Shown in pieces: positions 35,729 through 61,809 of a stretch of DNA of 64,000 nucleotides. Made by a program: the position numbers and the translations under genes. Every line of letters starts with the position of its first letter. Position 1 is the first letter of the stretch. The DNA comes from Dactylonectria macrodidyma. Lineage: Eukaryota > Ascomycota > Sordariomycetes > Hypocreales > Nectriaceae. The stretch is from the NCBI GenBank assembly GCA_020744425.1, contig JAGMUV010000006.1, positions 806,001 to 870,000 on the forward strand, written 5' to 3'. Below the pieces are notes generated by a model. The model did not search any database, was not told where the DNA came from, and was given only the letters and a program-made list of their open reading frames with translations.

Positions 35729-35959
35729 GATACTACACGAGACCTGAAGTTATCCCTCTCCAGCATTGGAGCATTCTTTCGAAAGGCAATTTGGCTTGTC
35801 CGCCAGCCATGGAGCCAGTTAGAATCAGGCAACCAACCACCAAAGGCAATTTGTCCGACCTGTAACAATCTGAAGGGAAGAGTTTATTCTTGGGACGAAG
35901 TCAAAATCAGCTACTCTGATCTTCCGAGAAGGCGACAAAATTGTGTCATCTGCGCCACG

Positions 35960-37825
35960 ATGTTAGCCGCCACTCGTCGCTTTCATCCACCAACCAATAC
36001 TTCAACTGGATTCTTCCATCAGTGGAGGGAATCCTGGGAAGATGATGAGGTTGTCTTGGTTTGGAACAAGGACAAAAAAACCATCACCGTCGAGCTAGGA
36101 CGCCACGGCAGTATCTTGCCTCGTTTCACATTCTACTGCCTGACAAAAGGCCCGGATATGCCACTCATCTCCTCACCAACAGCCATTGTCGATGATACAA
36201 GATCCGAAGCCACCATGCATCGAGTGCTCTCATGGATTTTGGCATGTACCACGGAACATGAACACTGTGGCAAGAATGAACCCAAGCCGTTACCAGACCG
36301 AGTGCTTGACCTTGGGGATTCCCACGACTCGCCAATAAGATTAATTGATTCTCACAATCAACTGGGTTACTATGCTTGTTTGAGTCATTGTTGGGGCCCC
36401 GTACAGCCTCTACGAACTCTAAGTGGAAATAAGATTGCATTCATGACTGGGGTTCCAATGGCTGTGTTGCCGAAAACCTTTCAAGACGCCGTTTCAGTGT
36501 GTCGTCAACTCAATATACGCTACTTCTGGGTAGACTCTCTCTGCATCGTGCAGGACTCCATTGATGAATGGCAGACACAATCGTCTAAAATGGCTACCAT
36601 CTACGAAAACGCGTTCATCACCATTGCGGCAACGAAGGCAAAGGGTCACGAAGAGGGCCTCCACCACAGCGAGGAGATAGAAATGTACATGGATTGCATT
36701 CCCGCATCCGAAATAGGCCACGGAATTAACGAAGACGTTTATGTGCGGCTCAACTATGATTCTCAAGGCGGGATCAAGCACTGGGATATTCCGGACTTTG
36801 GGGAATCACAAGATCAAGAGTGGCCACTGCTCACACGAGCCTGGGTGTTTCAAGAGCGGCTTCTCTCGCCACGGATGCTACACTTTGCCAAAAAAGAGCT
36901 TGTCTGGGAATGCCGCACAGGAACCTTTTGTGATTGCGGCAGGCGACTTACCGACGCATCCAAAGAGATGCCCGACATGGAGTTCCGAAGGCTGGTCAGC
37001 AGCCAGTCTATCAAAACAAGCGACGTAACCCCAGCGCAATTTCGGGCGCTTTGGTACGCCATCGTTGAACGATATTCCCGCCTGATGGGGAACCTCACGC
37101 ACGAGGGAGATGTCTTCCCTGCCTTGTCAGGTCTTGCTACTCGCATCTCCGGGCTTCTCGATGATGAGTATGTGGCTGGCCTCTGGTGGAGCAACATGGT
37201 AGAGGGATTGCTGTGGACATACGACATTTACAACGAAAGGCCACAGCCGTACCGGATAAGACTCCCACCAAAGTCATGGCGCGCTCCTACCTGGTCCTGG
37301 GCATCAATGACCGATGCAATCTCATATCAGAACCACTCGAGGTTTCAGTGGACAAGAGGAAACTTGCAGGAAGTTTATGCTCGAGTAATAGACGTCGAAT
37401 GTACTTCAACCGGCTCACAGAAGACCGGTCCGATCTCCTCGGCGGCGTTGACTCTGTCTGGGTGGATATCATCTGCGAAAATCCAAATAAGACGCATCTC
37501 ATGGGGGTGGCGATTGAGCCCTGAGGAACCGTCATTTGGACTGTATTGTACCCTCGACCGGGGTCCATATGAACCGTCACTCTTTATCGACCACCCCGAA
37601 GATCTCGTCGACGGAACAAGGGAAACATGCCTGAGGCTGGCAAGAATTGCAAACCAGGACTGGTACCTAGTTTTGGTCAAGGAAACCCCGAGTTCAACCT
37701 CTTTTCGAAGAGTTGGTTTGTTTAGAGGACCCGACATAACGTGGCAGTGGACGTCGTCGGAGAGTTGGCGCCGTCGTGCCCAGGAAAGATACAACGAGGA
37801 GAAGTGTGTGATGCGAATTGTATAG
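35960..37825 (+). CDS. HET-domain (heterokaryon incompatibility) protein, start unresolved
   Basis: From the first in-frame ATG the ORF encodes 621 aa. The HET domain is clear: YYACLSHCWG (motif 1), LPKTFQDAVSVCRQLNIRYF, then FWVDSLCIVQDSIDEWQTQS and KMATIYENAFITIAATKAKG (motifs 2-3), with RAWVFQERLLSPRMLHF downstream. The true protein begins earlier: in the same frame, from 35849, the sequence reads ICPTCNNLKGRVYSWDE and then NCVICATMLAATRRF, a C-x2-C ... C-x2-C pair typical of the zinc-ribbon-like start of such proteins. That frame is open back to a TAA at 35726-35728 with no ATG, so either a short 5' exon is spliced on (for example from an ATG at 35671 using a GTGCAT donor at 35679 and a CTCTCCAG acceptor at 35763) or the gene carries a nonsense mutation. 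HET proteins trigger cell death on non-self fusion. Confidence 0.85.
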   Translation: MLAATRRFHPPTNTSTGFFHQWRESWEDDEVVLVWNKDKKTITVELGRHGSILPRFTFYCLTKGPDMPLISSPTAIVDDTRSEATMHRVLSWILACTTEHEHCGKNEPKPLPDRVLDLGDSHDSPIRLIDSHNQLGYYACLSHCWGPVQPLRTLSGNKIAFMTGVPMAVLPKTFQDAVSVCRQLNIRYFWVDSLCIVQDSIDEWQTQSSKMATIYENAFITIAATKAKGHEEGLHHSEEIEMYMDCIPASEIGHGINEDVYVRLNYDSQGGIKHWDIPDFGESQDQEWPLLTRAWVFQERLLSPRMLHFAKKELVWECRTGTFCDCGRRLTDASKEMPDMEFRRLVSSQSIKTSDVTPAQFRALWYAIVERYSRLMGNLTHEGDVFPALSGLATRISGLLDDEYVAGLWWSNMVEGLLWTYDIYNERPQPYRIRLPPKSWRAPTWSWASMTDAISYQNHSRFQWTRGNLQEVYARVIDVECTSTGSQKTGPISSAALTLSGWISSAKIQIRRISWGWRLSPEEPSFGLYCTLDRGPYEPSLFIDHPEDLVDGTRETCLRLARIANQDWYLVLVKETPSSTSFRRVGLFRGPDITWQWTSSESWRRRAQERYNEEKCVMRIV

Positions 37826-42281: not shown

Positions 42282-42395
42282 TACAGTGGGTCTTGAAAAG
42301 TGTCGACACATTTCCGGGTACCCCGCTTTCCCTCTACCCACACCATAATCAACATTCAACTTCAACGACACATTGCGCAGCCAAATTAGGTCAGA

Positions 42396-42673
42396 ATGGT
42401 GTCACGATACTATCATTCACCTCATACAAGAACGAGGATTATTTAGAAGTACAACTCGGGCATGTCCGCCACCCAGATCGCGCGCAATAAGGGCATTAGT
42501 CAGCACGCGATTTATAGTATAGTAAGAAGGTATCGCGACCAAAAGAGTGGTTAAGACCAACCCAGGTCCGGCCGGCCACATATACTAAGAGAATAGGAAA
42601 AGAGATAAATACTAAGGGTTATAGCATAAGACCCTTATATCTAAGTGAAGGAATTGGTTAAAGAAGCTAGTCT
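42396..42673 (+). pseudogene. Mariner transposase, N-terminal fragment
   Basis: From ATG 42396 the frame shows a helix-turn-helix region (GMSATQIARNKGISQHAIYS then IVRRYRDQ) and the GRP-box-like DQPRSGRP, interrupted by TAG/TAA at about six codons where Glu, Gln or Lys are expected. It ends at the AGTCT target of Copia A with codon phase 2; the right-hand fragment resumes in phase with LTYSKGTILSFL. Confidence 0.85.
42669..42673 (+). repeat. Target-site duplication AGTCT of Copia A, left copy
   Basis: Perfect 5-bp match to 60657-60661 on the other side of the element. Confidence 0.85.
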
Positions 42674-42882
42674 TGTTAGAAAGCTTGCGTAGCACTTAGA
42701 TGACTTAATTGTGTGTGTATTGTATGTGTATATCTAGGAGGTCTTCTGGCTGTGACTGCGTATGTGTTCTAATTACTACTAAAAGTGGGGGCCTGAAGTA
42801 TCTGCACTAATAGGCAGTCTTAACCCTAAAGGTCACTACATAGCCGCCTGATTAAGTGCTTTATATATGATCTAATCTAACA
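42674..42882 (-). repeat. Copia A 3' LTR (left)
   Basis: The 209-bp LTR aligns without length difference to 60448-60656; most differences are G/A or C/T transitions. This copy retains more G and C at its outer edge. Confidence 0.88.
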
Positions 42883-45728
42883 CGCCCCTTTAGCTTAAGG
42901 GCATTACTATTAAGCTACACTCTTTATCTTTCTTTAATTATTCTAATTAATTAGAAAGATCTATTAGCTTAAGCTACTAGGTGAATTTAGTAAATGCCTC
43001 TCTTAGTAGGCTCTTTATTAAGCTATTAGTAAGTAATTGCATTAATAAAGTGTAAATTACTTTAATCTTTTCTTTTAATATCTCTTACTTAAGCTAGTAG
43101 TTATGAATATTAATATACTATAACTTCGTCTATAGTTATATAAGCTTCGCTATAATTAGTCAGATAGTCTATTTATTATTATACTTAATAGTGACTCTTA
43201 AGGGTAAGGCGATTACTTAGTAAGCAGTTAGTAAAGATAAGTCGATTTTTAATACTAAAATAAGTCTATTTATAAAGAGGGCTTCTTTAGTAGCTTAAGA
43301 TAAAGCGAGCAGTTTAGCTTTAGTTATTAATATTATAACTATATCCTGCTTATTTACTTTTTATAATATAACCCTTTTAAATAGCTTTATAATAAAGGCT
43401 TATAAGCTTTAATAGTCTATTAAGTTATTTATAAAACTTATATTAAAAACTACTTATAAGCCATCTTCTTTATATTTAGAGATCATACTATATTTAAAAG
43501 AAAGACTGCGTATTTTAATAAAGTACTATAAGGCTTAATTAGCTACTTAATAGTACTATAGCTCTAAGTTCTGGTTAAACCTAGCTAGCTAGCTTACTAT
43601 AAACGCTATATTCAGTTAGGTCATTATAGCTATGTATATAATTATTCTAACTTTATATTAATAAAGATTAATGCTTTTAGGACTAGCAATCTCTTTATAG
43701 AGCAATAGTTCTTCTTATATTATAGGAGTTATTACTTATAGTCTTAGTGTATAATTAGCGAGTAGTTAGTATATCTTATTAATATAAGAGGACTATAAGA
43801 GCTATAAGTAATAGTTTCTATAGTCTTAGATTACTTCGATTCTTAGGAACTACTATAGAGGCTTGCTTCCTTCTAGATAATAGGTCTTCTATAAGTCTTT
43901 TATTAGTAATATTACTTAGGGTTTGACCTACTTTAAAAAGCAAAAGACGCAGTTATTTATATAAAAGAAGAAGATAATATCCCTATAAAGCTAGTAATAG
44001 TCCTCACCTAGTACTTAGCGAAAGCCCGCTAGTAATAAACCCTTCTTAAAGTGCTTTTACTATAAAAGAGGTAATTATCTAAGACTATAAAGGGCTTTCT
44101 ATAGCTTTAGGATCATTCCTAGCTTCTAATATCCTCTAAGCATTTCTATATAAATCTCTTTATTAAGCTTTATATATATAAAAGCATTAACTACATTATA
44201 TTATAATATATTATAGTTAAAATAGTTAGCTAGAGCTATAAGGGTCCTGAATAACATGCTTACTAGAGTTATTATATAGGTCTCTTAGCTATTAATTACT
44301 TACTAATTACTATATATTATAAAGCGTACTTTAATTTTTAAGAATCTCCTATACTTATTAAACTTATAAATATAGACCTAATAATAGCTAAATACTTAAT
44401 AATCTTTTACTATAGACTTAGTAACTTTAATCTATAATTATAACTCTATATAACTCTATAAATATACCTTCTTAACTATAAGTATTACATCTTAGTATAA
44501 ATAACTTAATCTCTTTATATATAAATTAAGAAGTAGTTCTAATAGTTACTAATATATACTAATAATAGGCTGCCTTTCCTCTCTAAGTATAGAACTTATC
44601 CTATCCTACTAGGCTTCTTACTTTCTTATAGTAACTGCAGAGCTCGTCCTATCCTACTAGGCTTCTCGCTTTCCTATACTCAGTTCGATCTAAAGGCAAG
44701 TAATACTTCCTCTATTAAACGATCTAATAGAGCTAGCCAGGCTACTATAGACTGCTTAGCAGTTACTTATATAATGTTTTAGTAATTAGAGTCTCCTAGC
44801 TAGGAATACTGCCTTAAAGGAGATCCTTTATCTTACTAGCTATTCGCTAACCTTTTTATAACTAATCTTATTATCTACCTCTCCTTTCTTATACCCCTTT
44901 ATACTAAGACTAGCGGCTAAAGTATAGAAGAATGCAGTAAGTAGTAACTATAGGGGAGTAAGAAGTAACTTAAACTTAGCTATTATATACCCTTCTAATA
45001 TCTTTCTAAGCTCTTCTTATTCTTAATTACTTACTAAGTATTTAATAAAATAACTATCTTCTAACTTATTTTAGATCTTATTTACCTTATTATCTAATAG
45101 TTATAATACTTATTACTCTGCATATTCTTATATTAATAGCAGCTTCTAGATTTACTTTTAAATAGTCTTAAGGTCTTCTTTTAGTAAATCATCCTAAAGG
45201 CTTTCTAAGCGCTTATTAAATAGTTACTATTTATTAAATATAATGTCCTAAGTAGTAAAGACCTCTTTTTATAATAGATTCTATACTCTAAAGGAATTAC
45301 TAAATATATAACTAATTAAGAAGCTGATCTAAGCTCTTAGTAACTGCCTTTATAGTCAGTTCCTTTATAGCTATGCATTAGCTATAAGGATAAAGACTTT
45401 ATAGCTATATACTTAGAAGTATAAGAGATCAGGCTTTATAGTCTTTTCTAGCTGAAATTAGCTATAGAATAGCTTATATAAGGTCTTCTAGTTCTTATAT
45501 ATTAATAGTATATAATTATATAAGTAAGTAACTGCCTTTATTAACTCTAGCTATAAGTATTTAAGTAATTTAGCTCTAGTATGCATTATATAGCTCTTTT
45601 AAATAATAATAATAACTACTTATTCTATACTTCTATTTTATACCTAAGTATTAAGCACTAAGGGCTTAGTAAGTATTTTACAATCCTTTAGTAATTCTAT
45701 AACTTATAAGTATATATTTATAATCTTA

Positions 45729-45733
45729 TTATT
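45729..45733 (+). repeat. Target-site duplication TTATT of Gypsy B, left copy
   Basis: Perfect match to 58180-58184. AT-rich, so chance agreement is somewhat likelier than for AGTCT. Confidence 0.7.
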
Positions 45734-45908
45734 TATAAGGGTTGGTCTATTAAGGTATTACATAAGAGATCTGAAAGTAGGTATAGAGTAGTGTATAAGC
45801 ATTCACTTAGTGAGTGCTTAGCTAGCCCTCGCTAAAGAGCTAGTCTAGCCTATATTATATAGCCTCTTATCTAATAAGACTATAGCTCTATTAGCTCTAA
45901 CTCTTATA
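45734..45908 (-). repeat. Gypsy B 3' LTR (left)
   Basis: A 175-bp repeat of 58005-58179, same length, differing by transitions. Both termini are TA...TA where TG...CA is expected, in keeping with RIP at the ends. Confidence 0.85.
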
Positions 45909-48900
45909 ATTATCTTCCTCTCTTTTAAGCCTTATCTTAAAGTATGATTCTTATGCTTCTATTATCTAAATGATAAGGTCATTATTTATCTATACGTTTA
46001 GTGCGTATTCACTATATGCTATAAAGTGTAAATAATAGGAATTATAAGTCTAGTATTTATTATTAGTCTAAGCATTCAGCTAGTGTTTATTAGTTATATA
46101 GTCTTACTTTGCTTAAATTTATAGTATTTCTATTCTTTATATTATCTATAATTATTATTTTCCTTTCTTTAGCTTTATATAATTTTATATACTTATCTTC
46201 TTACTATATTCCTTTTTTCTCACTTTATATATACTCTTCTATTATCTTCTCTCTTTTCCTTACTCTTCTTACTTACTAATTATTCTATATCTATTTACTA
46301 TATATTTATTATAATATTATTCTTTATAATTATTATAAAGGTCTTATTATAATATAAATCTTAGACTAATACTAAGTATATATTTTTAAATAATTAGTTT
46401 TTAAGAATACTAAAAGATAAAGTTCTTTACTCTTATTATATAAAGTAAAAATACTATTCTTTTAACTATATTTATATATATAGCTCTTTATCTTCTTAGT
46501 ATATTATTTATAAAGTAGTAAAGTAGAAGTATAGTATAGTAAGTCTTTTTAAGTTTTTATTAAGTATTTACTATATATTTAATATATTATTAGATTCTTA
46601 CTAAACTTATTCTTATTATTTAATAGTATTAGAACTTCCTTTATTATTAAGGTTAGTATAATTAGAGTAAGGATAATATAAATACTTTTAATAATCTTAA
46701 ATATTAGAGGATCTATTAATTTATAAAGGCTATTATTATTACTTAGTATTATATTTTTACTTTTACTAAGAACTTAATAAATGCTTGCTTTATAGATAGT
46801 AATTATCCCTCCTTAGTATATTAAGAGGCTTTATATTCTATATAACTTATAAAATTATAAACTGATTTTATTATACATTTTTTCTTTACTTTTATATATC
46901 TAAACTAATATATATTTAGTTAGGTTTATTATCTAATGTCTTTAAAAAAGAGCTATTTAAATATTCTAAGTCTATTACTCTTCTTTACTATTATAAGCTT
47001 ACTTAAGCTATTGCCCTTCGTTCTATACTTACTTGCCTTATAATTACTAAAGAGATGCTTATATACTCTATGCTTATTAAAGGATTTCTAGCTAAGTACT
47101 CTAAAGATTTTAATAATAATATTAAGATAACTATTAAAAAGTATTATAAGAATCCTACTTTTAAAGCATCTATCTTATTTTCTAGTACTCTTTCTATTCA
47201 TTATAGTATTACTAGTACTCTCTCTACCGTTAAGCTACTAACTCCTTATTAACTATACTATGCTTACTCGCTATCTTCTATTATTAAGTCTTCTTTCGTT
47301 TATAATAATAAAGGCGAAGTATCTCTTTATGCTAAGGTAGAGACAGTTATAGCCTAAGCTGAGGCTATTACTATAGCTACTCTCCCTTTGCTTACTATAC
47401 TCTTAGTAAATATAAATAACACTCCTTATTCTTATTATAGTTATTAAGTAAAGAAGTCTTATAACTAAGTATTATCTTTAGTTTTATAGCTTTAGTTCTA
47501 ATTTATAGTTCTAATTTATAATTACTTTAACTTAAGTATTAGTTAGTCTTATTAAGTACTTAGTTTATTTTAAATAATATTAACTATTTAATAAGCTATT
47601 AATATACTTTTAGTATATTTTTAATTATCTATTATCCTATTTTTTATAATTATATTTCTTTTATTTATAGTATTAATAAATAGCTTTTTATATATTTTCT
47701 AAGTATTAAGATAGTTCCTAAGTATTATATTCTATTAGCTAACTTACTCATTTAATTAAGTAGAATATATTTTCTTTAGTCTTCTTATTTAAAATAATCT
47801 CTTTTACTTCTTACTTATTTTCCTCTTCTTTTAAGTCTAAGAAGTCTATTAAATAGTTACTATACTTTTAATAAGCTTCTAGCCACAGTTCTAAGAGCAC
47901 TATAAAGAATATATTATATATTTAATAGTATTATTATAATAAGTATACTTAATATACTTACTTTCTAATCTGCTTTATAATAGTAACTTTAATATACTTA
48001 AGTATTAGTTTCTTATTCTTAAATTAGAAGTTATATATAAATAATCTTATAATTTATCTTTTATAATATTCTTACTTAATATATCTCTTATTATAAGCTT
48101 TTGCTTATACTTTTATTACTTAAGTCTAACTCTCTTAAGCTTTAGTATATACTTACTAAATATTCTTTATATATTTAGTAATACTTTATACTTATATCTT
48201 TAGGTATTCTAAAGTATAGCTTACTATTCTTAGATAGTAGCTATATAGTGCTTATATTAGAGAGACTCTTATTATATTATACTAGCTATTATTATATATG
48301 ATCTTAGCTTTTACTAGCTATACTATCTATCTTTTTAGTATATTTCTTATAAAAATATAAAGGTATTTCTTAAGTAATTAGTTTATTCTTTTAGTTTGCT
48401 TATCTGTCTATAGATAGTATATAGTAGATAGTTAGTAATAGGTTGCTTATTCTCTTATTAGGTCAGCTTAGAATTAACTTATAAATAGCTTATTTTTATT
48501 ACTAATAATGCCTTTTAGTATATTAAATTTGCATTTAACTTATTTATATAATACTTATATAAATTATATAGTAATTATTATCTTCTTATATAGAATGAAG
48601 ATTATATACTTAGTTATATAGTATACTATAATTAAGATAGTATTATATTACTTACTATTTACTTAAGCACTATTTAGTAATTCTATAATAAAATCTATAG
48701 AAATTTCTTAAAAGGGATTTATTAGTATTAATAATAGCTATAGCTTCTTATATAGCCTATATCTAAGTATAAAGATACTATAGCATTTCTTGTATTTAGT
48801 AGTATAGTTTGTAATATTCTTACTAATTCAGTTCTAATAGAATTTTCTACTAATTAATTCTAGTGTCTTAGCTTTTCCTATATGCCTAGCTTTTAGATTA

Positions 48901-51798
48901 TTATAATAGTATTAAAGGATTTCTATTCTTAAGGTCTTTTCTATAAGAATAATAAGTCTGCCTTTATAGAATAAGGTGCTATTTTCATTATAATAATAGG
49001 TTCTTATCTTCCTAGCTATTTACTAAACCCTTACTAATTATTATTAGTAGAAATAATTATTAGCTTACAGTCCTTAGACTAATTCTTCTAACTTTATTAA
49101 TAGTTATAATAAAAATGCTATTTTACTTATTATAAGCTCTTTTATAATTAGATATAAGATGTATTACTCTAGATTAATAACCCTAGCTTTAGATAAGTCC
49201 TCCTAGCTTCTATAAGCAGCTAGCTCTTATTAAGCAGTCTTTATATATTTATTAGTCTTTCGGCTCGCTATTCTAGCTCTTATAACTATAGAGATTAATG
49301 CTATATGTATCTAATCTTCTTTAGTTTTATTATACTAATTCTAATCGTAGGATAAGAGTACTTACTACTTAACTTAACTTATAAGGCCTCTTAAGCTCGC
49401 CTATATTACTTAAATATATGCTTTTATGACCTTTATTTGCCCTTTAAGGTTACTAATTATTTAATAAACATCTAGTAAAAGCTTTTTAATAAAGTTTAGC
49501 TTATTAGCTAAGGTTAGAAACATATTATTATATACTATCTCCCCCTCTATATAGTTAGGTCTATAAGATAGTCTATTAGTTAGATTATACTTTCTTAGTC
49601 TATATTTAATATTAAAGTTAAAGAGTGCTAATCTATATACTTATTTAGCTAGTCTGCCTCTTAGGTCTTTAGTTAATACTTTAATTACTCCTTTAAGAGC
49701 TATATAATCTATTAAAAGGAGGAATTTCTTAAAGAGTCTTAGTAAGTAGTGACTTTAGTTCTTAAGGCTCTTAATAATAGCTAGAAGTTCTTACTAGCCA
49801 ATGCCCTAGTATTGCTCAGTATCTATCAGTTTCTAAGACCAATATATAACTAGTCTCTATTATTCTCTATATAATTAAGTCAAAATGCTTAAAACTGCCT
49901 TTAGAGAAGCATCTATCTTTACTTTAGTTCTTCTTACTAAGTCCTAGTATTAGAGAATGCTTACTAAATAGAAGGCGGATCTTAGTATTTAGAATACTAT
50001 ATTTTAATCTTCTCTTTATATAAAGGGTTTCTTATTCTCTATAGTCTTTAATAGTTCTATTAATAGTGCTATTTAGTAAGAGTATTCTAGAATGAACTTC
50101 TTATAGAAGTTATAGAATCTTAAAAAGACCTATATGTCTTTAATACTCTTTAGTGCTTATTATTTAGTAATTGCTCGTACTTTACTTAGCTCTATCTTTA
50201 GTCCTTCTTAAGTAATTATATACTTAAAGAATTCGACCTCCTTCTAATAGAAGGCGTACTTTAGTAGCTTTATATAGAGCTAGAAGGTTTTTAACTTTTA
50301 AAAGACCTCTTTTAAATCCTTAGTATATTATTCTTATATTTATAAGTATACTATAATATTATTTAAATATACTATATAATAAGTATTAAGCAATCTAGTA
50401 AGTACTTAGTTAATATATACTTAGAAAGTAGTAAGTGTATTAATTAGCTTAAAGAGTATAATTATATATTTAAAGTAATTATATCTTATATAGAATACTA
50501 TCTTTTACTAGTCTTCTTTTTTAATTTAGATATAGTAATAAGTATTATAAATATTAATTTTAAAGATCTATTTTACTCTAGTAAGTCTATTAAGTAATTT
50601 ACTAATTAATAGTAAAGAATAATAGTTTTTAATAATAACTATATTTAACTTATAATAATCGATATATATCCTAATGCTTCTATCCTTTTTAAAAATAAAT
50701 AGGACTAGAGCTCTTATTTTACTAATTAAGCTATTTACTTAACTAATCTCTATATTCTTAATAAAGTAATTATAAATAATTTCTACTTACTTCTTATTAG
50801 TAGAGTATATTATCTTTAAAAGAGGCTCTTTACTTTCTATTAGTTTAATAGAATATTCTACTCCTTCTAGGAGTAGTAACTTCTTTACTTTAGCTTTACT
50901 AAAGATCTTTCATTCTAACTTAAGTTCAGATAGTAGTATACTAATCCCTTCTTTATCCTCTTTTCTAAAGGCAAGTAGTAATTACTCATTTAGTATTAAT
51001 ATACTATATATATATATAATATATACCTTTTTACTATTTATAATAAGGTCTTTTATAAAGGAATTAGGATCTTATATTAAAACTGCTTTATAATACTATA
51101 TATTTATATATATATTAATTATAATGCCTTCTTAGCTTATAGTCTCTTTTACTAGTAGTAAATTACTTATTCCTTTAGGTCAGTTCTATAAGGCTTTTAT
51201 AAATAAATATCTTATTTTTCTTACTAACCCTTAGTAATTAAAGAGAAAGAATATTATTTAATATACTTATAGTATAGGATAAGTAGTCTTATTAAAGCCT
51301 ACTAGCTTTAGAACTTACTAATCTAGTATAAGTTTAAGGCTTAGTTTCTATACTAGCTTCTTACTAATTAGGCTAACTTCTATAGCTATATCTATATTTA
51401 CTTTAATCTTATATTTATTATATACTTAAAAAATGATTACTTATTTCTAAGTAATTAGACTGATTAGTATAAAACATAGTTTTAGTATAAGGATTATATC
51501 TTTAGACCCTATGCTTAGTTATTTTCTAATAAGTTAATCTCTTTAACTTTTATACTAAATTATTATATAGTTACTATTTTCTAGTAGCCTCCTTAGTTCT
51601 ATCTACTAAGAGCTCTCTTAATTACTATACACTTATTAGTAAAATAGCCCCTCTTATTATAGTTATAGTACTAAATGTAGGAATTGTTTCTTAGCTTTGC
51701 TAAGTACTTACTATACTCTTATTAACTGCTCGATCCTAAGTAGTTAGAGTAGCTGCTTCTTTCTTTACCTTTTGTTAAGTTTCCTTATCCTTATAGAG

Positions 51799-51803
51799 TG
51801 TAG
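51799..51803 (+). repeat. Target-site duplication TGTAG of Copia C, left copy
   Basis: Matches TATAG at 56880-56884 with a single G/A difference, attributable to later mutation. Confidence 0.7.
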
Positions 51804-51991
51804 TGTCAAATATTAGAGTGTAAAAATTGTGTATTCTGTCCTTGCCGCCTATGCCTTAAGGTTTCAGGGCAAGCTTTATATACTCTTTCTCTTCTGTATA
51901 GAATCAGCTAGAAGCTGATTACTAAGCCTCGTGGCAATAGGTGGCAATAGGTGGCAATAGGTAGCAACTTTCGCCTCTGACATATCTAACA
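51804..51991 (-). repeat. Copia C 3' LTR (left)
   Basis: This 188-bp LTR begins TGTCAAATATTAG and ends TCTAACA. Near its right end it has a tandem GTGGCAATAG unit repeated three times plus a variant. Confidence 0.92.
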
Positions 51992-54900
51992 CACCCCCTC
52001 AGATTCAATAACTTCTCATTGAGTCTAAAGCCCTTCTTCGTCCTTCTGGAGCCTCTTCCTAACGTCTTCTAATCCAAGTTAATATAAAAAGCGGTTCCAT
52101 TTTCCAGCTAGAAGTGCTTTCGTCAGGCCATCTGCGACTATGTCTATTAATTTGACGTATTTGACTTAAATTTTCCCTCTTTAAACCTCCTATCTGAGCC
52201 AGTGATTGTAGATATTAACATACTGCAACTTAGTCCTCAAAGTAGCTATCTCAGCCGTTATGAGGTTAATGGTCTGAGTGTTATCACAGTCAATCTGGAT
52301 AGTTAAGTCATCCAGTTAAACTATCAGCTCCTTAAGCAGTCAGCTCATAAAGAGAGATTCCTTAGCTGCCTATACTAGGGCTAGGAGCTCTGCTTCTATT
52401 ATTAATATTATAACTATATCTTATTTATTGGCTCTCTATCCGATCAGTCCGTTAAACAGCTTGATAGTATATGCTTACGAGCTCTTCCGATTAGTTATAT
52501 TATTAGCAAAAGAGGCATTACTAGTAATACTAAGACCGCCAGGCCTTCCGAAGGATAGGGCTAGGTTCTTTATGTATGTAAGGTAGTGGATGACGCGGTC
52601 AGCCGCTTCTTAGTGTATTTAACTTAGATTGGTAAGGAATCTGGCCAATCTGGAGATAGCAAAGGCTATGTTGGGTCGGGTGTTAACTACGATATAGAGG
52701 ATTGATCCGATCTTGTGTTAATATCGTTGAATTTCTGTTAGGGTTGCTAGCCCTATTATAGGCCGTAGTTCTAACTGAGTTATTGGTACTATAGCTGTTC
52801 CTTTATTAGCTAGGTTTGTAATTTTCTTAATATAGGCTGCTTAGGATAGCCAGATCTTCCTCATAAGTCAGTCCTGTATGACTTCTATTCTAAGGAACCA
52901 TTATACGGGGTTACTGCCTATTAGTTTGTATCTCAATTAGAGTTATCTGATCAGGTCCTTAGCTTTATTTTCTTATGTTTTCCTATAGGCCAGAATGACA
53001 TTATCGACATATACGAAGAAGAGGATTCCTTCTTTTCTAAAGCAGCAAGGCTCGTATAGAACTGGTTTATAGCCTAGCTCTAAGAGGGTCTTAGAAAGCT
53101 CCTTCTGCTACAGTAAGGGGGAGACTCTCAGTCTGTATAGAGCTTTGTTAAGCTTTAGGATAGTTCCTGCCTTCTTATAGCCAGGAGGCATCTGCATAAA
53201 GATATCTTAATCAATTGGAGCATGTATGAATGCGTTAACCACATCGTATTAGACCATTTCTAAATCAAACTTTGCTACAATAGCTATCAAGGTCCGAAAG
53301 GACCTTCTAGCTAAGGTAGCTGCGTATGTGTCTTGCAGCTTCCCTTTTGCTTATTAGTCTCCTCATACCACTAGCCGGGCCTTGCATTTCTGAAAGTAAC
53401 CGTGTTTATCTATTTTATAGACATACACCTACATACAGCCTAGGACCTGTCGATCAGATGCTCGAGGGTCCTTAGCTCGGATCTCAGTCTATGACCTCAT
53501 TTCCTTATGACTTTGAAGATGGATTTCTTCAGCCTTCTAGAAGAGGTTTCCCAATGGATGTCCTATGAGATCTTAATGCTTCATTAGTGCTGGAGGTAGT
53601 GCATTTTTATATACCTTTACTCCTTTACGGATCTTCCGTTCTGTTAAGGTTTGCAGAGGAGATTTGGTTCTAGCTAGAAAAGCTGCCTACTACGTGATCG
53701 TTTTATTCCCTTATTCTAACACATTTTGAGGTAACTATGCGAGTAGGGCAGATGGTAGTGTATCTAGAGGCGTGAGGAAGTCTTCATATTCTGCCCTTTT
53801 TACTTATAAGATTTTATTAATCGCTACTATAAGACGATCTCCTATGAGTTCATTTAAGTCTTCCTCTTCAGGAAAATCCACCTCAATACAGTCTTCAGTC
53901 TCTAGCTGATTAATCGGTTCGTCTTATTAAAAGGATGCAATTCGTGCGATTTCTTCTAGGTCTGCCTCTAAAAGGTCGTCCTTAAAGTTTTCCTAGTCTC
54001 TATTACAGCCCTTGTCTTTATTAAAAATGACGTCTCGGGTACTCACTATTCGATTGATCGTAAGGACCCAGATCCTGTAGATATTTAAGGATCTATATCT
54101 GACCAGGAAGCCGATCCATCCTTTCGGCTTGAGCCGCATCTTACGGTTAAACTTTTATTGTGCTTCGGGGGTTATAGCATAGGCCTTGCAGCTAAATGCT
54201 CTTAGATGTATTTAGTCAGGCTGTTTCACTAGTTATAGAATTCCTCTAGCTCTAGCTATCGCAGTATGCAATTGATCGTATAGTGTTTTCTAGCCTGATT
54301 TATAGTTTGGCATTCGGTTATATAGATAAACTGCCGTTCTGCCGATTTCTGGCCATAGCTGATGAGGGAACCTAGCGCCTGTTCGTATAGCTCTTTCCTT
54401 ATCCTTTATCACACCCCCTAAGCGTTCAGCACCGCCGTTTTATGCTTGGCTATATAGTGCTAAGGGCTTAATAATAATGGCTCTATTCTGTATGAAGTTT
54501 CTAACTTATAGTTTGACCTCTATAATCTTATTATCGCATTTAATAACTTTGATCTTAATGTTATATTGAACTTCTAAGTATTTAAAGAAGGATTTAAAGA
54601 CTATAATTATAGCCTCTATTATCCGAGATGTAAGGTAATAATCCCAAATGTAACCCGTTAATCAGTAAGTAAGTAATATCTGCAAGGTATAGCCACCTAT
54701 CCCTTCTTTATAGTCATAGAAATTGATAGCAATACGTTCGCCGGCTCTATAGTCAGACTGCCTTAGAGCCTGTCTGACTTATCTCTTGATCTTTAATAGG
54801 CTATAGGCGTTATATTTAACTGTTATTAGTCCTTGAATTCACACCCCCTGAGATGCTAAGACGAGGTGTTCAAGAGCTTGCGGTCCCGGATGCCCTAGGC

Positions 54901-56691
54901 AGTTATGCCAGCAGATGGCTTCTCCTACTAAAGGAGCCCTCTTAGTATAAGAGGTGAACCTGTAGGCTGCCTAAACCGCTAGGGTCATCTCTACTAGTTA
55001 GTATTTAATGACGTATTGACTGTATAGGTCCTTGATCGGGCAGGCGATTGTCTAATCGGAATGACGGAGGGTCATTGGATCACGTCTGTTATCCCAATAG
55101 AGTCCTTTCTTCTATAGCTAACGTAAGGAGACTAGAGTTATAAAGAGTCGGGGACAGTAGGCTATATCTTTAAGTAATAGGGCTCGAGTTCTTATTAGCC
55201 TGACTATCATTATTCTATATTCTAAAATTAGTAACTTTCAGTTACCTGACTAGATAAAGTCGCCTAGAAGGGCCGGCTGGAGATCAGCTAGTTAATTAGG
55301 GTCATTCGTGATTAAGATCGTTATTCCGGGGTCTAGGATTTGAGATTTTCATAAGGGATAGTCATTGCTCTAGGCAGCAAATGCGGCGTTGACTTTAGCA
55401 ATAAGCCGGCCATATAGTTATTGGTCAGAGGTTTCCTTAATAGCTAGTTTTAGTAGGTTCTTAGACTTCTTCTGAGTAAGAGCTTTTACTTATGCTTAGA
55501 GGTCTAGGTCTTCTTTAAGGGCTTCTCTTACCTTTATCTAAAATTTTTCTTAAGGCCTAAACCCTCTCTAAGCTATATTTAGGAAAACATAGAAGCATTT
55601 CTTAAGGACATAGGGTAGGCCGTATGCTGGGCATTTATCCTATTCTTTAGGAGGCCTCTAGCGCTTTATCCTTTGCCCTTCTTTCTTTAGAGAACGGTAC
55701 TGACCTTTAATGATGCGAGCGTCCTCTGGTTCATTATCCTAGGGGTCCTCCTTAGCAAAGCTCGTAGAGAATGCACCTTAGGAGAAATTTCCTATACGAC
55801 CTAGGCCTCGTAAGGCCTCTGCATTTTTAAGCTTATTCTAGAAGGCGTTTGCTAGATCTCGATAGATAAGAGATTTATCTTAGATCAGGTTTTATTAGCT
55901 AATTTCATAGGCTGCTGTCTAGGCAGGGAGAAGTTATAAAGAGATATTAAAGAAGTCATATGCTCAGGAGCTATAAAAGAAGGTCTTAGGGACCTTTTAT
56001 TACTATCCTTTAGCTAAGGCTTCCTCCCACTCTTCTAACCATTTGAGTGCTTGAGTTGCGGTCTTTAGAGGTGTTTTCATAAGGGTTAAGTATGTATTTC
56101 AAGCATCTCGTATTTTATCTGCTTCTAACCTCCTGCATTAGGCACGGAGATTGTAATGCTATTCGTAGATCGACTTATGCGGCTAATAACAGGTCTGGAT
56201 ATAACTAGGAGAGACAGTTCGGATAATCCAGTCTTAGAGGGTTCTTAGAGACTTCCTCTGTCTTTCTGATGACTTTTCTTAAAGCTGATAGAAAGAGAGG
56301 TCCTGTTAGAAGCTCTTCTGACCTTATTCAATTAGGTCAGATAGAGACTATGTTCCATTGGTTGTCTTCTGTATATCATCTGAATTAGTCCCTTCAGTCT
56401 TAGGTATTTCTGATCGAATGGTCTGTTATGCTGCTATTATCTTAGTGTATTTACGTCTTCTAATATCTAGGAAGGCCGATTCTTCTTTAAGGAAAATCTT
56501 CTTTTTAAAGTGCTATTACAGACCTAGAAGGTCAACCTAAAGAAGGAATTCGTACTCCCAGTCCGGGAAGTCCCCGGGTTTTATAAGAGTAGCTATAAGA
56601 CCTTCTTTCTAGGATTTTCTATACAGCATTATAGATATAATAGAGGGATTCAAAAGATATTAAAATGGGTTAAGGCAGTAAGACTCTTAAT

Positions 56692-56879
56692 TATCAAATA
56701 TTAGGGTATAAAAATTATATATTCTGTCCTTGCCGCCTATGCCTTAAGGTTTCAGGGCAAGCTTTATATACTCTTTCTCTTCTATATAGAATCAGCTAGA
56801 AGCTGATTGCTAAGCCTTATAGTAATAGGTGGCAATAGGTGGCAATAGGTGGCAACTTTCGCCTCTGACATATCTGACA
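56692..56879 (-). repeat. Copia C 5' LTR (right)
   Basis: This 188-bp LTR begins TATCAAATATTAG and ends TCTGACA. It differs from the left copy mainly by G-to-A changes and also contains the 10-bp tandem units. Confidence 0.92.
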
Positions 56880-56884
56880 TATAG
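56880..56884 (+). repeat. Target-site duplication TATAG of Copia C, right copy
   Basis: Pairs with TGTAG at 51799-51803, with one transition. Confidence 0.7.
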
Positions 56885-58004
56885 GGTCTGCTTTATAGTA
56901 TATGCATTAGGGTCTTTAATATATATCTTTTCTATAGCCCTTCTTACTTATTATTAGAATAGTTTCTCTTCTTGCTTTAGCTTAAGAGTATGTCTTTATA
57001 TTAGTTATAGGGTTATTATAGTTATTATGCTTTTAATATAAGTTCTTTAGCTTATAAGATATTAATTTATATCTCTTAAATATCTCTTTTAACCCTATTT
57101 TAGAGTTTATAATAGTATTATAATATAAGTATCTTATCTTCTTCTAAATCCTTTATCTTTAATAAAGAATATAAAGATCTCTATATATTAAAGTATTTTA
57201 TTAGTAACTAGTCAGAAAGCTATTAGAAAGTTATAAACTCTTTATATAATTTAACCTCTCTCTATTTAGAGTCTATATAAAGCTTCTTTAGAAAGGCTAT
57301 AAATTAGTTTTATATAAAGTATATAAAGTTCCTTAAGTAATCTCTTTATTAAGTTTATAATAATAAAGAGAGTTTAATTATAAACTAAAGGATCTTTTAA
57401 TATATTCTAATAGATACTTAGAGATTATTTACTATCTTTATTACTTCTATCTAATTATTAATTTAGACTCTATTAGCCCTTTTAATTAATACTATATAAG
57501 GATAGTATAGTAATTTATTATATTCTTTAGGGTCTTTCTTATTTAAGCCTTTAGTAAATTACTCTAATAGTTTTTCTTAAAAATATTAGTCTTATTCTTA
57601 TTATTATATTATAATATAAAAGAGCGATTATATTCTATTATTATTATTCTTAGAACCTAGTTATAGACTTCTTAGTAAGTACTTAGTTATTAATTATTAA
57701 ACTATAAGTAATAGTAATTCTTTATAAAAGCTATCTTTATAAAGTATATAGAGTAGCCTTACTTTAGTTTCCTTTTAAATTAAGTAATTGATTGGATCGT
57801 ATTCTAATTAGAATCCTTTATTATTTGCAGTTAGTAGTTTAAGGTTTTTCCTAGCTTCATTTTATATAGGGTTATAAGTAAATAGTCCTGTATTCATTCG
57901 CAATTCGCTTATCACTCGCTTAGCAATACCTAGGTTCAGTAGTGTATTCCTTCTTATCTTATATAACGTATTAATAATCTACTAAGATATAGAAGTGAAT
58001 GAAT

Positions 58005-58179
58005 TATAAGAATTAGTCTATTAAGGTATTATATAAGAGATCTAAAGGTAGGTATAAGGTAGTGTATAAGTGTTCACTTAGTAAGTGCTTAGCTAGCCCT
58101 TGCTAAAGAGCTAGTCTAGCTTATATTACATAGCCTCTTATCTAATAAGACCATAGCTCTATCAGCCCTAACTCTTATA
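58005..58179 (-). repeat. Gypsy B 5' LTR (right)
   Basis: This 175-bp repeat partner of 45734-45908 is followed by the right-hand TTATT duplication. Confidence 0.85.
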
Positions 58180-60447
58180 TTATTATATTTAATCGCCTTA
58201 ACTTTAATAGAGTATTAAACCTCTAGTATTTTAAAAAAATAAGTAATCACTAAGCATAGTATAAGTATTAACTAATTATCTATATAATAATCCTATAAGT
58301 AATTAATAGCTCTATTTATAAAGATCTAGACTAATATATAATTAGTATAGCCTTAGGTTATTAAATAGAAATTAAGAGTAATATAATTACCTGGCCTTAC
58401 CTTAGCTATTACTTTTTATAAAGCCTGTCTAATTATTTAATAAGCCTTTATTATACTATAAGCATTATAATTAATAGTTATAATCCTTTATAGTCTTTTA
58501 AGCTCTTCTATCTTCAGTCTAACGCCCCTTAAGGCACTTATTAAGCACCTAAGGGCATTAGGGCCTAGATGACCTAGCTATTAGTACTACATAATAGTAT
58601 CTTTTTAAAGAGGTTATTTATAAGTCTATAATATATGCCTTTATTTCTTCTAGAGTTAATTAGAGAAGAGTGCTACTAAGCTATTAGTAAGTACTTATTA
58701 AGTATTTAATATAATTAGTTAGCTCTCCTTCTCTTTAAAGACCTGCTATCCCTCCTGCTTATTAATAGCTCTAAGGAAGGTTCTATCTAATCTCCTAAGA
58801 CAATTATTTCCTAATCTTATATCCTATTAAATGCCTCACTTTCTTAACTTTAAAAAAGATATAAGCTTAGTAATAAGAGCTATATATAGTATAATATTAA
58901 GAACTATAAGCTTCTTTAGTAAACTATTAGTAGCTATTAGAGTAATAGTTCTTTTACTATATCTATTAATTAATACTTACTATATACTTAATTAGAAGAA
59001 GTCTCTTAAAAGAATAGCTTATAGATTCTTTATTCTTATTATATTATAAAAGATATCTAGTATTACTTCTAAGTCTAGGAGGACGGAATCTTATAGCGGA
59101 TAGTATTCACTAGCTATTAGAGCAGCATTCGTATTATAAGATCCTACTAATCTAAGTTATACAAACCCTTCTAATTTAATCTTTTTAATCTAATTAGCTA
59201 GGTTATCTTTATTCCTTTTGATCCGCTACTTAATATAGTTAGTAATATACTTAATAAGTAGAAATCCTTATAGCATCCTCTCTAGAAAGGCATAGTAATA
59301 TTACATAAGTAAATAGAAGAGGTAGTATACTAAGCACTTAGATTCCTTATTATCTTTAATGCTTTAATAAAAATGCTTCTTACCTCCGCCCCTTTACTAA
59401 GCATTCTCTAAATAACCCTTATCTTATTCTTTTTAGCTGCCTCTACTATAAAAAGCGCTTAGTATAATTCTTACCTTCTTTAGAAGCTCTAGCTAGTTAT
59501 TAATCGCTCTACGAATATCTACTATAACTAGCCTAATAGTAAGAGTACTAGCTCTAATTTAAAGGGTCTAGATTATACTATAAGCATTAATCTATAACTC
59601 TATTAGTATAAATTATAGAGCGCTAGTCAAGTTATTAAGCTATTAATCAGGCTCTATTGCTTCTTAGAGCTTAATATTTTAAGCTTTATTAATAGTATTC
59701 TTTTAATATATAAGCTAGTTACTGATTACTTAATAGATTATAATCTTATTTAAGTACAATTTAGCCAGTATCTTATAGTATATTTAATAAGCTTTCTACT
59801 TATATTTATCTTTAATAAAAGAGAACTTATTATAAAGTGACTAGATCTATTTAATAAAGGACTTCTTATTTAAGTAATAGTACTAAAAGTAGGTTTTATT
59901 AATTATATCTATAACCTAGTCTTTAATAGTCTTTATCTTTTTAACTATTTATAAATATAGCTTATTATAGTACTTATAATTAGTCTATAGTGCATTATAT
60001 ATTTAAAGACCCTTTTCTATTAGTTTATTAATATCTTAGGCTTAGATAGCTATATTATCCTCTTCTTAAAAGGTTAGGTCATTATTATCCATTTAAACTA
60101 TAATTATATTAATACTTTAAATAAAAGTTAATAGAGTATTAGTAAGCATTCTATAACTACTTAATGCATATTTCTTATAGAACTTCTTAATATCTAGAAG
60201 AGTTAGTACTATAAGTATAAGCTCTAGCTTATTAATTTTCATAAGGTTAAGGAAGTCCTAAAGGTCCTCTTTCTTAGCCTTCATCTTAAGTATTTTAAAC
60301 TAAGTAATCTAATCGTCTTCTATAATAAGCTTAGTAGTCGAATTAGTCATTATTATTCTTAGTAAGTGTTCTATAAGTACTTATATATAATCCATACTTA
60401 ATTAGGTATTTAAATAGAGTAATAATATAGTGTATAAGACTTTTAAT

Positions 60448-60656
60448 TATTAAAAAGCTTATATAATACTTAGATGACTTAATTATATGTGTATTATGTA
60501 TATATATTTAAGAGGTCTCCTGGCCATGACTGTATATATATTCTAATTACTACTAAAAGTGGGGGCCTGAGGTATCTATACTAATAGGCAGTCTTAACCC
60601 TAGAGGTCATTACATGACCGCCCGATTAAGTGCTTTATATATGATCCAATCTAACA
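60448..60656 (-). repeat. Copia A 5' LTR (right)
   Basis: This 209-bp LTR partner of 42674-42882 is followed directly by AGTCT. On the minus strand the internal DNA next to it starts ATTAAAAGTCTTA, the presumed primer-binding site. Confidence 0.88.
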
Positions 60657-60661
60657 AGTCT
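60657..60661 (+). repeat. Target-site duplication AGTCT of Copia A, right copy
   Basis: Perfect copy of 42669-42673. Confidence 0.85.
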
Positions 60662-61471
60662 GACCTATTCTAAGGGGACTATTCTAAGCTTTTTAAAGAA
60701 GGAAGGCATTATACATTATAAGTCACTTATCCAGCCCTTCCTAAGCAATACAACAGCCATAAGGCGGCTACGGTTTACAAAGAGATATATATATATATCT
60801 CCCGAATTCTAAGAGTCTTAGACCTTCTCAGATAAAGTTATCATAGCCCGAGGCAAGGGCCAAAAACGCACTTAGTACTTCTATAAGCCAGTCAGTTTTC
60901 TTACTGCAATTATAACTGCCCTAACAGCTCCTAGTATAAGAGACTATTCAAAAAGAACGTCCAGACCCGTATAACTCTAACAAGGCATTTATAGATGTTT
61001 TTTAGTGCCTTCAGCTTCTTTAAACAGCTTCCAATAATCCCTCTTTATAGTAATAAGAACTCAGACTATAGTAGCATCATAGCGCGAGTTCTACTCGAAT
61101 GCTTATAGTAATACCTTCCTCACATTATCACTAAGAATAGCCAGTTCTAGCACGATAATTCACCCCTTTTTCGATCGCGATTAATAATAAGCTAACTACT
61201 AGAATAATGCGAGAACAGACAGACAGAGGCCATCGACTAGCCCCCCTACAGCCCGGATCTCAACCCTATAGAAAACCTATAGGCCATCCTCAAAACAAGG
61301 ATATATAAGCAATACCCTAAGCTCTCATACATACCAAAGACCGAGGAAGCAAAGCAGCAGCTCATTAAAGCCGCGGTCGAACTGTGAGAAGAAATCGAGC
61401 CGGAGGTGCTGCAGAACCTGATCCATTCAATAAAGCACAGAATGGAGGCCGTTATCCGCACACGTAGCTAG
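60662..61471 (+). pseudogene. Mariner transposase, C-terminal fragment
   Basis: The frame resumes with TYSKGTILSFLKKEGIIHYK. Near 61250 the DDE-domain signature PDLNPIENL appears, followed by a TAG where Tc1 family members have Trp, then AILKTRIYKQYPKL, and the reading ends with MEAVIRTRS and a TAG at 61469. Fragment lengths show that the frame at the two ends differs, so at least one indel lies between, perhaps in the (TA)n palindrome near 60786-60803. It is inactive. Confidence 0.85.
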
Positions 61472-61809
61472 TATACGAAATATTAAAGATGCCATTAGAA
61501 ACTCCATTCAAAATTCTACAGATTGGTTTATATAAATATTTAATTGACATTTATTTAATTTTACTAGAATTATTTGAAAATGAAGCCTTCATGTAGTGCA
61601 AGTACAGTGACACCGGGTTGACTCCGGAAGTGTTGGCTCTTTCTGAGGCCCACTGTACCTCAGGTGAGATCAACCGTTTTTTCCTCAACCGCTGCCTATT
61701 GGACAGTGCATCTATTTCTTGAACACTGTCAAAGCTTGTGGTTATACTGGGAGGCCCACCACAAGGAAATCTTCTAGATGCAAGGCATAAGTAAAAGTAT
61801 AAGTGTGCC

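What the first reader, a model, noticed from the sequence alone, without database searches (positions are those of the whole stretch)
42282..61657. Four transposons nested one inside another, resolved to the base
Terminal repeats and target duplications give a consistent order: Tc1/mariner (TA) hit by Copia A (AGTCT), hit by Gypsy B (TTATT), hit by Copia C (TGTAG/TATAG). LTR pairs have exactly equal lengths (209, 175 and 188 bp). Removing each inner element with one duplication copy rejoins the outer one; the mariner transposase reading resumes in phase across the Copia A site. This explains the entire AT-rich island and yields a relative chronology.
Basis: seen in the sequence. Interest (0 to 1): 0.88.

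Follow-up and report, generated by a model that had tools for sequence, protein, structure and literature searches.

The report
Four nested jumping genes, mutation-scarred
In this fungal genome four jumping genes landed one inside the next and were riddled with mutations by what looks like a repeat-attacking defence; the layered structure is real and exact but of a kind already well known in fungi.

Summary
The nest is real and exact. A Tc1/mariner (42282-61657) was hit by Copia A (42674-60656), that by Gypsy B (45734-58179), that by Copia C (51804-56879). LTR pairs are 209/209, 175/175 and 188/188 bp; target duplications are AGTCT/AGTCT, TTATT/TTATT, TGTAG/TATAG. Uninterrupted copies in the same genome show each empty site: 7 of 7 mariners, 11 of 12 Copia A, 19 of 19 Gypsy B examined. 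The host is close to Dactylonectria.

[quoted passage not shown] Nesting gives order; LTR divergence gives no dates.

A further result: RIP in the mariner is centred on the mariner's own midpoint, not on the Copia A site, and both AGTCT copies carry a RIP-type base that 7 of 7 paralogs lack. RIP probably struck the intact mariner before Copia A landed; a rival mix is not excluded. Such nests are known in fungi (PMC4522978). Low novelty.

The parts
42282..42673 (+). Tc1/mariner, left part (TA + inverted repeat + 5' part of transposase), ends with TSD AGTCT
   Evidence: 92.6-93.1% to 7 uninterrupted paralogs
42669..42673 (.). target duplication of Copia A, left copy AGTCT
42674..42882 (-). Copia A LTR, left copy (209 bp)
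42883..45733 (-). Copia A internal part, left of Gypsy B (RT/RNase H region, riddled with stops)
45729..45733 (.). target duplication of Gypsy B, left copy TTATT
45734..45908 (-). Gypsy B LTR, left copy (175 bp)
45909..51803 (-). Gypsy B internal part, left of Copia C (RT, RNase H, integrase zinc-binding remnants)
51799..51803 (.). target duplication of Copia C, left copy TGTAG
51804..51991 (-). Copia C LTR, left copy (188 bp)
51992..56691 (-). Copia C internal part (SH3_retrovirus, RVT_2 remnants)
56692..56879 (-). Copia C LTR, right copy (188 bp)
56880..56884 (.). target duplication of Copia C, right copy TATAG
56880..58004 (-). Gypsy B internal part, right of Copia C
58005..58179 (-). Gypsy B LTR, right copy (175 bp)
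58180..58184 (.). target duplication of Gypsy B, right copy TTATT
58180..60447 (-). Copia A internal part, right of Gypsy B
60448..60656 (-). Copia A LTR, right copy (209 bp)
60657..60661 (.). target duplication of Copia A, right copy AGTCT
60657..61657 (+). Tc1/mariner, right part (rest of transposase + inverted repeat + TA)
   Evidence: 87.6-88.0% to 7 uninterrupted paralogs

Best explanation
A fourfold nested transposon cluster in a Dactylonectria-like ascomycete. Order: a Tc1/mariner inserted at a TA; Copia A inserted in its transposase gene; Gypsy B inserted in Copia A; Copia C inserted in Gypsy B. Each LTR element made a 5-bp target duplication, and all three read on the minus strand (shown). 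RIP then turned CpA into TpA on both strands, nearly exhausting CpA in A and B, touching C moderately and the mariner partly, and filling the reading frames with stops (mutation pattern shown; the RIP machinery inferred). RIP fades towards the ends of the elements, so its footprint marks which unit was recognised as a repeat. For the mariner the footprint spans the element as if uncut, which suggests that RIP struck it before Copia A landed (inferred, about 0.7).
For: Exact LTR pairs and TSDs. Empty sites: 7 of 7 mariners (L002-L008) run from 42673 into 60658 with the site present once; 11 of 12 Copia A copies (L010-L021) run through the Gypsy B site with a single TTATT; 19 of 19 Gypsy B copies (L030-L048) run through the Copia C site, 14 with alignments overlapping by exactly five bases and 5 collinear with an alignment ending 2-11 bases short. 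The parts searched have unbroken collinear copies elsewhere, so no further insert is hidden in them. RIP: 61 of 61 LTR differences are transitions; (CpA+TpG)/(ApC+GpT) is 0.25-0.38 in A and B against 1.27 in window 1-40000. Edge effect: bases that differ between the two LTRs lie inward of the outer ends (A P=0.007, B P=0.012, C P=0.21, pooled P=0.0002); mutated CpA in C falls to 3/23 in the first 150 bp and 1/14 in the last 100 bp. Mariner: fitted peak at 713 of 1388 (95% 652-779; midpoint 694; Copia A site 390); log-likelihood -101.1 for distance to the mariner's own ends, -114.5 for distance to the Copia A site, -109.3 for the ends of each half, -116.9 for none. TSD base: paralogs GGTCT 7 of 7, window AGTCT at both copies; one TpG>TpA change before the insertion explains both.
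Against: For the order: nothing found against it; one Copia A copy of 12 (L020) did not show an empty site because it carries another insert there. For mariner RIP before Copia A: a model of leakage from A plus RIP of the right arm reaches -100.2 with two more parameters, an AIC worse by only about 2. The four other mariner copies profiled (L069-L072, other subfamilies, measured against L002) showed no hump, and one of them (L072) has its changes in the right half; eight more (L073-L080) were not profiled. The 7 closest paralogs show little RIP, so there is no like-for-like control. The edge effect was not significant for Copia C's LTRs alone. Both mariner arms are biased to G>A, but Copia A's right LTR leans the same way, 17 to 6, so strand bias does not decide.
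Confidence: 0.95

Rival explanations
1. The nest is an assembly chimera: reads of four repeats joined wrongly.
For: All four are multicopy families in this genome, and repeats are where assemblies fail.
Against: A misjoin would not be expected to give 5-bp duplications at three levels, a TA at both mariner ends and a resumed mariner frame. No read data were available here.
Confidence: 0.02
2. The AT-richness comes from age and ordinary mutation bias, so LTR divergence ranks real ages (A about 15%, B 10%, C 7%).
For: The LTR divergence order equals the nesting order.
Against: 0 of 61 LTR differences are transversions. Between copies transitions exceed transversions 23- to 142-fold by segment, and the left mariner piece has 194 transitions and no transversion summed over 7 alignments. 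In the mariner, at sites where 7 paralogs agree, CpA changed in 68/175 against CpC 7/177. By CpA+TpG depletion the oldest element, the mariner, is less affected than A and B inside it.
Confidence: 0.03
3. The mariner's RIP came after Copia A: leakage from saturated Copia A into both arms plus RIP of the still-long right arm.
For: A two-part model reaches log-likelihood -100.2. RIP leakage to at least 930 bp in Neurospora is cited in PMC2973834 (passages seen). The 7 close paralogs fetched show little RIP; only this copy, with a RIPed insert, is strongly affected.
Against: Leakage alone is rejected: at matched distances of about 100-390 bp CpA changed in 7/42 on the left and 21/34 on the right, P=9e-5. 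The two-part model has a slightly worse AIC (by about 2) than the whole-mariner model. Both TSD copies carry the changed base; in the right copy that base is no longer in TpG context, so two later hits are less likely than one earlier.
Confidence: 0.28

Closest known systems
Nested TE clusters of Mycosphaerella graminicola (Zymoseptoria tritici), PMC4522978 (passages seen, one from the abstract)
   Same: 78 putative clusters, primary insertions dominated by LTR elements, an example with a 5-bp TSD, CpA>TpA RIP; the authors say that RIP may lead to overestimated LTR ages.
   Different: Other species and families; the passages seen do not use RIP profiles across a split element to order RIP against insertion.
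RIP leakage beside repeats in Leptosphaeria maculans, PMC2973834 (passages seen)
   Same: RIP load depends on distance from a repeat boundary.
   Different: There RIP runs from a repeat into single-copy DNA; here the flanks outside the mariner show ordinary CpA+TpG counts (26-49 per 250 bases) and the footprint follows the mariner's own length.
Ty3/gypsy and Ty1/copia LTR retrotransposons; Tc1/mariner DNA transposons
   Same: Domains, LTR/TIR anatomy, TSD sizes.
   Different: The window's copies are broken by stops.

Membership tests
Tc1/mariner | TA target duplication and terminal inverted repeats | tested here: met
   TACAGTGGG at 42282 and its reverse complement ending at 61657
Tc1/mariner | Transposase with HTH and DDE domains | tested here: met
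   HTH_Tnp_Tc3_2 (E about 5e-18) and DDE_3 (E about 1e-11, profile positions 59-135 of 146) in paralogs L002 and L008, in two overlapping frames; the window copy carries stops
Ty1/copia (element C) | RVT_2 reverse transcriptase downstream of the integrase-side domain | tested here: met
   SH3_retrovirus at 822-893, then RVT_2 at 1078-1303 (protein E 2.8e-24) in one minus frame, X at stops; that SH3_retrovirus lies on the integrase side is recalled
Ty1/copia (element A) | Copia-type reverse transcriptase | tested here: met
   No Pfam match at E<=1, but 35% identity (158/455), E 5e-76 for the single comparison, to the RT region of Copia C paralog L052
Ty3/gypsy (element B) | RT, RNase H, then integrase | tested here: met
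   Ty3 Gag-Pol 8e-46 over residues 347-738; RT_RNaseH at 622-724, Integrase_H2C2 at 953-1005
LTR retrotransposon (A, B, C) | Equal-length LTR pairs and 5-bp TSD | tested here: met
RIP-affected AT-rich island | C>T mainly at CpA, few transversions, confined to repeats | tested here: met
RIP-affected AT-rich island | Mutation occurs in the sexual cycle through the RIP machinery | not testable with these tools
   needs a cross; genes for the machinery were not searched

The most novel reading that the evidence does not exclude
RIP leaves a unit-shaped footprint that fades at the ends of whatever stretch was recognised as a repeat, so in a nest it can tell whether the outer element was mutated before or after being split. 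Here it says that the mariner was mutated while still whole, and that RIP and insertions alternated.
Probability: 0.55. Interest if true: 0.45.

Novelty: new member of a known kind. Interest (0 to 1): 0.27.

Why it matters
As a nest it is ordinary for a RIP-active fungus. Its use is as a cleanly resolved example: it shows that LTR divergence in RIPed genomes measures RIP and not time, and that the shape of the RIP profile across a split element could order RIP episodes against insertions. Applied to many nests, that could show whether RIP acts in bursts or steadily.

Tried and rejected
Host guess: from genome size (77.28 Mb) I first suspected Pseudocercospora fijiensis (PMC13041039, outline and section 5 seen); a window protein 97% identical to one of Dactylonectria estremocensis overturned this. 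The species is not settled; the one Dactylonectria genome length I saw, D. alcacerensis, is 61.76 Mb (PMC11433043, passages).

Symmetric RIP leakage from Copia A was my first reading of the mariner gradient; the fits rejected it. Strand bias as a marker of a shared RIP episode: the mariner leans to G>A in both arms; Copia C leans to G>A over the 3 kb compared with L052, but changes private to the window show it clearly only in its first 800 bp; window-private changes in A and B do not lean, yet A's right LTR does; undecided. Mariner copies as controls for the hump: of 12 fetched, L069-L072 were profiled, no hump; at 108-118 transversions from L002 and its sisters they belong to other subfamilies. 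L073-L080 were only aligned and their distances counted. Pfam on Copia A: nothing at E<=1 in six pieces. Eight paper searches: in the titles and abstract starts listed, and in the passages read, I saw no ordering of RIP against insertion by RIP profile; this is not a full search of print.
Full report
Observation. LTR pairs are 209/209, 175/175 and 188/188 bp, with 31, 17 and 13 differences when compared position by position. Target duplications are AGTCT/AGTCT, TTATT/TTATT and TGTAG/TATAG; the mariner is bounded by TA and TACAGTGGG inverted repeats. Mariner (1,393 bases with both TSD copies), Copia A (5,537), Gypsy B (7,370) and Copia C (5,076) add up to 19,376 bases, exactly 42282-61657. Outside the mariner, CpA+TpG counts are 26-49 per 250 bases and GC is 0.41-0.58, without the island's depletion.

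Independent test of the order. No excision was needed, because the same genome (G000, 77.28 Mb, 77 contigs) holds uninterrupted copies. In 7 of 7 mariner loci (L002-L008) the left piece ending at 42673 runs straight into the piece beginning at 60658; the alignments overlap by four bases because the fifth TSD base differs. In 11 of 12 Copia A copies (L010-L021) the alignments overlap by exactly the five bases TTATT; the twelfth, L020, carries a different insert at the spot. In 19 of 19 Gypsy B copies (L030-L048) the site for Copia C is present once: 14 with alignments overlapping by exactly five bases, 5 (L032, L035, L037, L040, L048) collinear with one alignment ending 2-11 bases short. The site reads TATAG in 16, TATAA in 2 and TGTAG in 1. 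The further matches, including the fetched L022-L028, were not checked for the site. The internal parts searched have collinear copies elsewhere without a break, so no further insert is hidden in them. Of the 40 matches scored (of 111 candidates) for 42282-42782, only the window's own crosses into Copia A, so there is no sign that the nest itself is duplicated.

Identity of the parts. Mariner paralogs carry HTH_Tnp_Tc3_2 and DDE_3 in two overlapping frames of 196 and 171 aa; the window's copy resumes in phase across the Copia A site but holds stops. Copia C matches SH3_retrovirus and RVT_2. Gypsy B matches Ty3 at 8e-46 and RNase H and integrase zinc-binding models. Copia A has no Pfam match but is 35% identical to the RT region of a Copia C paralog. 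These matches put all three LTR elements on the minus strand. A window methyltransferase is 97% identical to a Dactylonectria estremocensis protein (taxonomy).

RIP. The three LTR pairs differ only by transitions, 61 of 61. Between the window's copies and paralogs there are 71-119 transitions but 0-4.1 transversions per kb, by segment; single alignments of C reach 11 transversions per kb (alignments below 82% identity or of fewer than 300 bases were left out). In the mariner, at sites where 7 paralogs agree, CpA changed in 68/175, CpG in 37/155, CpT in 15/175 and CpC in 7/177, with one transversion and four reverse transitions in 1,356 bases. In A and B CpA sites are nearly exhausted, and copies now differ mostly at CpT. 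So AT content and LTR divergence measure RIP, not time. By CpA+TpG depletion the oldest element is less affected than A and B inside it, and Copia C, the youngest, is moderately affected.

Edge effect. RIP is weaker at the outer ends of the elements. Where the two LTRs of an element differ, the changed base tends to lie on the inner side (A P=0.007, B P=0.012, C P=0.21, pooled P=0.0002). In Copia C, mutated CpA falls to 3/23 in the first 150 bp, against 0.24-0.68 in the other 19 bins of the left 3 kb, and to 1/14 in the last 100 bp, against 0.31-0.59 in the ten bins before it (other reference copies).

RIP before Copia A. Along the mariner, mutated CpA per tenth runs 0/24, 7/17, 6/12, 8/13, 9/17, 10/16, 13/20, 7/17, 5/19, 3/20. 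The fitted peak is 713 (95% 652-779) of 1388, the midpoint 694 and the Copia A site 390. Log-likelihoods: whole-mariner ends -101.1; ends of the two halves -109.3; distance to the Copia A site -114.5; none -116.9. At matched distances of about 100-390 bp from the site, 7/42 changed on the left and 21/34 on the right, P=9e-5. The TSD agrees: 7 of 7 paralogs read GGTCT after a T, the window reads AGTCT in both copies; one TpG>TpA change before insertion explains both. Against this, leakage plus separate RIP of the right arm reaches -100.2 with two more parameters, an AIC worse by only about 2; four other mariner copies of other subfamilies show no hump; eight more were not profiled; and no RIPed, uninterrupted sister of the same subfamily was available. 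I hold RIP before Copia A at about 0.7. By contrast the TGTAG/TATAG pair implies a TpG>TpA change at one copy after Copia C landed.

Known or new. Nested clusters with TSDs and RIP are described in Mycosphaerella graminicola, 78 in one genome, with the remark that RIP may inflate LTR ages (PMC4522978, passages). This nest is a new member of that kind. The use of the RIP profile to order RIP against insertion is the only part I did not meet in the listings and passages I saw.

Noticed in passing
L002-L008 and further places: The mariner subfamily has at least 11 other copies at 92-93% to the window's left arm; the 7 fetched are nearly identical to each other (0-19 transitions, 0-4 transversions) and show little RIP, so it probably moved recently.
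   Followed up: partly
L020 near 2524-3009: Another Copia A copy carries a different insert of about 480 bp within about 10 bp of the Gypsy B site.
   Followed up: no
   Followed up: partly
window 51930-51965: The Copia C LTR holds a short tandem repeat (GGTGGCAATA, about three to four units; read directly).
   Followed up: no
window 44584-44678: A 47-48 bp direct repeat inside Copia A (81% alike). Copies L010, L013 and L014 align over it without indels, but L011 has 48 gap columns, perhaps one unit more (place not checked).
   Followed up: partly
window 23753-26356 and 35729-37825: NB-ARC/TPR protein and HET-domain protein on the host side, gene types recalled as common in filamentous ascomycetes.
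   Followed up: no
L008 11-1081 and L052 3-962: ORFs beside the fetched mariner and Copia C copies look like pogo-type and hAT-type transposases (recalled motifs, not searched).
   Followed up: no
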